From assembly GCF_021556395.1 (NCBI RefSeq), contig NZ_JAKGCS010000015.1:1-64000 (forward strand): a stretch of DNA of 64,000 nucleotides. Reading direction: 5' to 3'. Below, piece by piece: positions 56,856-57,626 of this stretch; position 1 is the first letter of the stretch, and each line of letters starts with the position of its first letter. A program made the translations under genes and the position numbers. This stretch comes from Acuticoccus kalidii (lineage in GTDB: Bacteria > Pseudomonadota > Alphaproteobacteria > Rhizobiales > Amorphaceae). Under the pieces are notes generated by a model that was not told where the DNA came from, did not search any database, and saw only the letters and a list, made by a program, of their open reading frames with translations.

Positions 56856-57626
56856 CATCGCCGACTACAGCTACGATCCGAACGGCAACCTCACCGTCAA
56901 GACCGGGATGGGGCACTACACCTATCCCGCCGCCGGCCAGCCGCGCCCGCACCTTGCGACGCGGGTGGGGGTATCAGCCTTATGGGGAGGAGGCGCGGAG
57001 CGAGGTGCGGCCGACGCCGGCGGCGGAGTCGAAGTGCTTCCTGTCGGAGCGCTACGACGAGGCCGGGGCGCTGATGGACCTCAATGCGCGCTATGATGAT
57101 CCGCGCATTGCACGGTTCATACAGCCCGATTTGCTCGATCCGGATGTGCCGGGGGTGGGGATCAATCGCTATGCCTATGCGTTGAATGATCCGATCAACA
57201 AAATTGACCCTGGCGGAAAGCAAGTTGTCACTGACGACGAACGCGAAATGGCGGCTAACGAAGACCTGGTGGGATTTTGGAAATCGCGCGCAAAAAGGGG
57301 AGATCCTATTGGGCCTCTCGGCATGGAGTTTGGGGTGGAGGAAAAGACAATCTCTGTCCGTCTGTCAGACGCGATCCTGGAGAGCGCTATTCGGAATGAG
57401 CATGAGCGCATTTATGCCGACGCGCTTTTCGCTCATTACAGCAGCAATAGGCTCATGTAGCGGCAGTAGATAAATGTAATAGGGGAAACCAAATTTTCTG
57501 TCACCAAGGCAAATAACAGAATATTATCACAGTATTTTTAGTGAAAATGACCTCCCATTAAGTGAATTTTGCAGAACACCCTTCACACGCCTTGGAATTA
57601 CGCCTGATATGACGAGAGCGTTTTAA
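56856..57626 (+). pseudogene. Decayed RHS/YD-repeat gene with toxin-like C-terminus
   Basis: Three pieces lie in order. First, 56856-56950 reads DYSYDPNGNLTVKTG and YTYPAAGQPRPH, a YD repeat unit. Second, in another frame, YQPYGEE then SERYDEAGALMDLNARYDD and INRYAYALNDPINKIDPGGK form the RHS-associated core ending at the DPxG boundary. Third, the C-terminal part reads MAANEDLVGFWKSRAKRGDP up to a stop at 57458-57460. The family-like ending LSPRQITEYYHSIFSENDL, PLSEFCRTPFTRLG then appears in the +1 frame (57483-57626). At least two frameshifts and three stops separate the parts, so no full protein is made. N-terminal repeats are absent. Confidence 0.8.

What the first reader, a model, noticed from the sequence alone, without database searches (positions are those of the whole stretch)
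56856..57626. Decayed RHS polymorphic-toxin gene whose toxin end is recovered only by joining frames
The YD repeat, RHS core and DPxG boundary are in two different frames. The frame ends at 57458-57460, but a family-like toxin ending (LSPRQITEYYHSIFSENDL ... CRTPFTRLG) lies in the +1 frame at 57483-57626, after the stops TAA, TAA and TAG. So this locus once encoded a contact-dependent or secreted toxin tip that has been silenced by frameshifts. The toxin type itself is not one I can name, and it may be a useful member of an unclassified RHS C-terminal group.
Basis: partly seen in the sequence, partly recalled or inferred. Interest (0 to 1): 0.7.

Follow-up and report, generated by a model that had tools for sequence, protein, structure and literature searches.

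The report
Decayed orphan RHS toxin tip
This is the broken, displaced tail end of a bacterial RHS weapon protein whose toxin domain, still readable in two different frames, belongs to a small family that the protein libraries tried here do not name; intact relatives sit on other proteins next to what looks like an exported antidote.

Summary
A YD-repeat scrap (56861-56952) is in one frame, the RHS core and DPGG boundary (56972-57217) in a second, which stops at 57458-57460; a 47-residue tail lies in the third (57483-57623). The tail does belong to the same toxin domain: a profile built only from intact proteins elsewhere (Sphingomonas VgrG end, Marinobacter, a Pseudomonadales MAG) matches this genome at two places, 57218-57409 (profile 4-65) and 57486-57593 (88-123), collinear and 76 bases apart. 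Frame changes are not the whole damage: the copy is a 5'-truncated "orphan" tip of rhs genes elsewhere in the genome, lacks about 120 codons of RHS, has lost conserved tail residues, and is a mosaic with a duplicated gene fragment. The genome holds several such scattered tips. No Pfam, NCBIfam, PHROGs or PADLOC model reaches its cut-off or E 0.1 on the window's toxin part. All four intact relatives found are followed by a gene whose product has a hydrophobic N-terminus; three of these four are related to each other. From that I infer a toxin acting in the periplasm with an exported antidote. A decayed orphan rhs tip is ordinary; the unnamed toxin family is worth keeping.

The parts
56393..56864 (-). 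3' fragment of a gene whose longer copy (open frame on the minus strand) lies at C14:76257-76728 and beyond on the same contig; abuts the RHS piece
   Evidence: 97.7% identity over 472 bases; no Pfam or NCBIfam name for ORF 56392-56952
56861..56952 (+). YD-repeat piece of an RHS gene, 5'-truncated
   Evidence: 96.7% identical to the long rhs gene in contig C10; Pfam RHS_repeat 14.1 bits, below its cut-off of 22
56956..57217 (+). RHS associated core ending in the DPGG boundary (57206-57217)
   Evidence: TIGR03696 56.3 bits, 56972-57217; 90.5-91.2% identical to other tips at C7, C21, C20
57218..57457 (+). first part of the toxin domain (FW-x-SR-x-x-x-GDPI motif), stop at 57458-57460
   Evidence: profile positions 4-72, E 2.8e-6; BLASTP to 4 of 4 intact relatives, E 5e-7 to 4e-3
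57483..57623 (+). last part of the toxin domain (LSPRQITEYYHSIF) in another frame, stop 57624-57626
   Evidence: profile positions 92-124, E 3.7e-5
57635..57853 (+). 72-aa ORF with two hydrophobic stretches, in AT-rich DNA 8 bases after the tail's stop; possible antidote, but unlike the proteins that follow the intact relatives
   Evidence: nothing at E up to 1 in Pfam, NCBIfam, PHROGs, PADLOC (Pfam RseC_MucC at E 2); no plasmid match. Unlikeness to the neighbours is by eye.
57911..58284 (+). segment that recurs downstream of other RHS tips: C7 (twice), short parts at C20 and at C21, where it lies in the end of a serine-resolvase gene
   Evidence: 83% over 396 columns to C7:3768-4156, 97% over 106 bases to C7:1676-1781, 65 bases at C20, 53 bases at C21
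58522..58896 (+). internally deleted IS630-type insertion sequence with short terminal inverted repeats
   Evidence: IS630 transposase model 44.5 bits, below its cut-off of 100, C-terminal part only; inverted repeat 58522-58535/58883-58896

Best explanation
A dead orphan rhs-CT cassette. The genome has one long rhs gene in view (contig C10, 1625 codons open, running off the contig) and several displaced tips that share core DNA but carry different C-terminal ends. This one carries a toxin domain of about 140 residues, in DNA that grows AT-rich towards its end; intact relatives carry the domain at the end of a VgrG spike protein and of other proteins, each followed by a gene for a protein with a hydrophobic N-terminus. 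In life such a tip would be delivered by a full-length RHS protein after recombination through the shared core; the toxin would act in the target's periplasm and the exported neighbour would neutralise it. Shown: RHS core, truncation, mosaic, the two toxin-domain parts in different frames, family membership by sequence, neighbours with hydrophobic N-termini. Inferred: that the domain is toxic, that it acts in the periplasm, that the neighbours are antidotes, that recombination ever linked this tip to a long rhs gene. Here it cannot be made as one protein.
For: Core. Shared core in other tips of the same genome. Long gene. Domain family. VgrG carrier (TIGR03361, 372.6 bits, cut-off 186.35). Hydrophobic N-termini of the genes behind 4 of 4 intact relatives. 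Neighbours of L083 and L084 are related (E 6e-14), that of L082 to both (E 5e-5 to 5e-3); that of L080 only weakly (best E 0.006). GC falls to 28-41% over 57400-57900, first toxin part about 50-54%, flanks 57-78%. Precedent for orphan tips and their recombination: PMC3967940 (abstract and passages seen).
Against: The ORF behind the window's tail is unlike the neighbours of the relatives, so no toxin-antidote pair is shown here. Tail match partly circular: the pattern that fetched three relatives was made from the tail; the one relative found without it (L084) matches the tail only at E 0.029, though it matches the first part at 5e-7. The stretch between the parts shows no significant match in any frame (486 of 2000 shuffles, 703 of 2000 window slices reach its score). 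One search scored only 10 of 23 first-look candidates in this genome. Toxicity untested.
Confidence: 0.82

Rival explanations
1. The frame changes are sequencing or assembly errors and the tip is a live orphan rhs-CT gene that can recombine with the long rhs gene.
For: RHS repeats broke this assembly: contigs C7 and C21 start at the core, and C10 ends in RHS at both sides.
Against: Truncated start, about 120 codons missing relative to a congener's ORF that is open across this stretch (L052), three stops within 12 bases and loss of the GG in the tail do not come from one error. Orphan tips may lack a start by nature, so truncation alone does not prove death.
Confidence: 0.1
2. The first part (57218-57457) is a complete short C-terminal domain and the tail is an unrelated open frame.
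For: The frame stops at 57460; the stretch between the two parts has no significant match.
Against: A profile from intact relatives covers both parts in order with about the right gap (profile 4-72 and 92-124).
Confidence: 0.05
3. The domain acts in the cytoplasm (for example as a nuclease) and the hydrophobic N-termini of the neighbours do not tell its site of action.
For: Many known RHS tips are cytoplasmic enzymes (recalled); in the 2012 survey only one immunity family looked like a lipoprotein (PMC3482391, passage seen).
Against: 4 of 4 relatives are followed by such a gene; 10 of 100 open frames of the window (150 aa or more from ATG, all six frames, many not real genes) have an N-terminus that hydrophobic.
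Confidence: 0.25

Closest known systems
Orphan rhs-CT/rhsI modules (Salmonella rhs orphan, PMC3967940; abstract and passages seen)
   Same: Fragment of an rhs gene with part of the conserved core, a C-terminal toxin part after the boundary motif, no start or export signal, homologous to a long rhs gene
   Different: Scattered over contigs instead of next to the long gene; reading frame broken; about 120 codons of RHS missing; no matching antidote found
VgrG protein with C-terminal extension (L080, Sphingomonas jatrophae S5-249)
   Same: Its last ~140 residues are of the same domain family
   Different: Carried by a type VI spike instead of RHS, open, followed by a gene with a lipobox-like N-terminus (by eye)
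PDB 9p3h, 'Conserved hyopthetical protein', 444 aa
   Same: Weak profile match to family positions 13-63 (E 0.0093)
   Different: Only one stretch matches; the paper library holds nothing relevant under its code
Imm65 lipoprotein immunity (PMC3482391, one passage seen)
   Same: Antidote with lipobox
   Different: Goes with Tox-JAB-1; sequences not compared

Membership tests
RHS / YD-repeat polymorphic toxin | RHS associated core domain | tested here: met
   TIGR03696 56.3 bits, cut-off 32.5
RHS / YD-repeat polymorphic toxin | DPxG boundary directly followed by a variable C-terminal domain | tested here: met
   DPGG 57206-57217; other tips of the genome keep the core and differ after it
RHS / YD-repeat polymorphic toxin | Long array of YD repeats and a delivery N-terminus in one open frame | tested here: not met
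   Only 92 bases of repeat, no start; so it is a fragment, not a working RHS gene
Orphan rhs-CT module | 5'-truncated copy sharing near-identical DNA with a long rhs gene | tested here: met
   96.7% over 92 bases to the long gene; that gene's own core is off contig C10, so the 91% core identity is to other tips
Orphan rhs-CT module | Linked immunity gene | tested here: inconclusive
   72-aa ORF at 57635 without known relatives
Unnamed toxin-domain family of L080/L082/L083/L084 | Both conserved blocks, in order | tested here: met
Unnamed toxin-domain family of L080/L082/L083/L084 | Conserved glycines after the last helix block | tested here: not met
   window reads FCRT where relatives keep G or GG; fits decay, and lowers the claim that this copy could work
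Unnamed toxin-domain family of L080/L082/L083/L084 | Followed by a gene for an exported-looking protein related to the other neighbours | tested here: not met
   the ORF at 57635 does have a hydrophobic N-terminus but by eye is not of the A3 family; no alignment was run
Any toxin | Toxicity | not testable with these tools
   needs expression

The most novel reading that the evidence does not exclude
The domain is an undescribed polymorphic toxin family (motifs FW-x-S/A-R-x-x-x-GDPI ... L-S/T-P-x-Q-I/V-x-x-Y-H-H-x-V/I-F-x-x-x-G-L-P-x-x-x-FGG), probably helical, that kills in the periplasm, is paired with exported antidotes, and is traded between VgrG, RHS and other carriers.
Probability: 0.5. 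Interest if true: 0.5.

Novelty: new member of a known kind. Interest (0 to 1): 0.35.

Why it matters
As a locus it is one more fossil showing that rhs tips are scattered, recombined and lost. Its use is as a pointer: the decayed tail led to a toxin-domain family, unnamed in the four libraries tried, with open copies elsewhere and a recurring exported-looking neighbour. That makes a simple question testable: is this a periplasm-acting toxin shared between RHS and type VI spikes?

Tried and rejected
My own frame slip: window:57222-57457 is the wrong frame. It was used for the first-part searches (protein 3), 13, 27, 32, 33 and; those results are void for the toxin domain. They serve as a noise yardstick: 76 of 385 genomes (the own one among them) 'matched' that nonsense frame at E up to 0.1. 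Repeated in frame: Pfam, plasmids, class genomes (37), PDB. Not repeated: NCBIfam on this piece alone (the whole ORF was scanned) and the 101-genome relatives search.

Single-sequence searches found no relative: first part in 385 class genomes, 2 of 385 at E up to 0.01 = own and G558, the latter chance by its neighbours; tail in 397 order genomes, 1 of 397 = own; plasmids (tail; first part 38, 45: five weak hits in all at E up to 10, none annotated as RHS), phages (first part only), viral contigs (first part, profile A1), PDB sequences (tail 34, first part 40). Core plus first part against plasmids reached little beyond the core: 21 records, none covering 80% of the query. L080 and L083 ends against plasmids: no match.

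Profile hits dropped as chance by eye: L085, L087, L088 (two look like HD-domain regulators). In one search up to 10 candidates per genome were scored, so its 5 of 398 is a lower bound. Three of the six pattern hits (L078, L079, L081) are not in such proteins; my own arithmetic (no call) expected about six hits by chance, so the hit count proves nothing and the evidence is the upstream block. Of 78 genomes of G860's class only G860 itself matched.

Structure: two predictions of intact relatives were poor (mean pLDDT 54.5 and 53.8, helical); a PDB fold search with the second gave best E 4.4. The idea that the part between the two blocks lies in yet another frame was tested and not supported. 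PADLOC and PHROGs: nothing below E 0.1 for window pieces or relatives. Pfam gave two sub-cut-off matches in relatives' domain regions (LAP1_C E 0.056; DUF829 E 0.09), which I take as chance.

I looked for the empty site in 10 family genomes (printed list cut): flanking transporter, cold-shock and other genes matched piecemeal; I make no claim on an empty site. Whether the resolvase next to tips moves them was noticed, not tested.

Full report
What is there. The window lies on contig C14 of a 5.6-Mb, 36-contig genome, 94.89% complete. Between a diguanylate-cyclase-type ORF (54904-56274) and an SMP-30-type ORF on the other strand (58893-59867; both names by eye) is a stretch of broken pieces. 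From left to right: a duplicated 3' gene fragment (56393-56864, 97.7% to C14:76257-76728); 92 bases of RHS YD repeat (56861-56952, 96.7% to the long rhs gene in C10); an RHS core (TIGR03696, 56.3 bits, cut-off 32.5) about 91% identical to tips in C20, C21 and C7; the DPGG boundary; the toxin part, in DNA that falls from about 53% to 28% GC while the flanks are 57-78%; a segment that recurs behind other tips (57911-58284); and an IS630 remnant.

Frames. The YD piece, the core and the tail occupy three different frames. The core frame stops at 57458-57460. The tail at 57483-57623 follows three stops and has no start codon ahead of its matched part.

Where it comes from. The same genome holds a long rhs gene (C10, 1625 codons open, running off the contig end), a second copy identical over 815 bases at the other end of C10, and further tips in C21, C7, C20 (two) and C1. 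Their cores resemble each other and what follows differs. In C21 the tip is open for 244 codons from near the contig start, followed by a 145-aa ORF and a serine-resolvase gene on the other strand. In the window about 120 codons between the repeat piece and the core are missing, judged against a congener's ORF that is open across this stretch (L052; that ORF has 432 codons and is not a full rhs gene itself). At C20 a different stretch of RHS is joined to nearly the same point of the core.

What the toxin part is. No library names it: Pfam, PHROGs and PADLOC on the piece, NCBIfam on the whole ORF (core only). A wildcard pattern from the tail, scanned over the 84,980-species collection, gave six hits. 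Three of six are the ends of longer ORFs that also carry, upstream, the block that the window has before its stop: L080, a Sphingomonas VgrG (TIGR03361 372.6 bits); L082, a Pseudomonadales MAG protein with an FG-GAP match just below cut-off; L083, Marinobacter, a short ORF (201 codons from ATG). This upstream block was not part of the pattern. A profile of these three, without the window, was run over 398 genomes of the phylum (at most 10 candidates scored per genome). Five of 398 matched at E up to 0.01. In this genome, with 10 of 23 candidates scored, it gave two matches, 57218-57409 (profile 4-65, E 0.0027) and 57486-57593 (88-123, E 0.0076). One further true-looking member appeared (G860, L084, E 7.6e-25); three others look like chance. 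Within the window, with L084 added to the profile, the two parts rank first and second of 1607 pieces, the third at E 0.49. None of 60 shuffled windows has a piece reaching 18.9 bits with the three-member profile; the best reached 10.9. By BLASTP the first part matches 4 of 4 relatives, the tail 3 of 4 in that run and the fourth, L083.

Limits. The tail match is partly circular, since three relatives were fetched with it; L084, fetched without the pattern, matches the tail only at E 0.029. The stretch between the blocks has no significant match in any frame. The tail has lost the glycines that the relatives keep. The family rests on four sequences.

How it probably worked. The four relatives are each followed by a gene whose product starts with a hydrophobic stretch (by eye lipobox-like in L080 and L084, signal-peptide-like in L083, three tandem copies in L082). 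The neighbours of L083 and L084 are related (E 6e-14), that of L082 less closely to both, that of L080 only marginally (best E 0.006). In the window 10 of 100 open frames of 150 aa or more have such an N-terminus. I take these neighbours as exported antidotes and infer a periplasmic target. In a survey of polymorphic toxins only one immunity family looked like a lipoprotein (PMC3482391, passage seen). Orphan rhs tips of Salmonella are expressed after recombination with the main gene (PMC3967940, abstract and passages seen); the shared core here would allow the same, but nothing shows that it happened. The 72-aa ORF behind the tail is by eye not of that neighbour family; it may be another membrane antidote or nothing.

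Known or new. Orphan rhs tips are a known kind, and a broken one is no surprise. The toxin domain is not in the libraries tried; my five paper searches work on words, not sequence, so I cannot say that it is undescribed. A weak profile match to PDB 9p3h (E 0.0093) may be a lead to its fold.

Noticed in passing
L010 (G000:C21:1-1850): Open RHS tip of 244 codons, followed by a 145-aa ORF and a serine resolvase on the other strand; 53 bases of this resolvase end recur in the window segment behind its tip, and related DNA lies near the tips in C7 and C20, so tips may share a mobile 3' flank.
   Followed up: partly
G000:C10:1-815 and 18618-19432: The two ends of contig C10 are identical inverted copies of RHS DNA, so the long rhs gene and a second, 5'-truncated copy both run off the contig; the assembly is unresolved there.
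   Followed up: partly
window 56393-56864 and C14:76257-76728: A 472-base gene fragment with a copy about 20 kb away abuts the RHS piece; an ORF next to the longer copy reads AGSCFA (GSCFA-like by eye).
   Followed up: partly
window 58522-58896: Internally deleted IS630-type element with about 14-base inverted ends; related DNA occurs in C20 and in congeners G004 and G005.
   Followed up: no
L082 851-3292: Three tandem 251-aa genes with hydrophobic N-termini behind one toxin-domain gene (the two compared are 82% identical), as in an antidote array.
   Followed up: partly
L052 (G004:C5): A congener has an RHS tip 60% identical in the core with a different C-terminal end.
   Followed up: no
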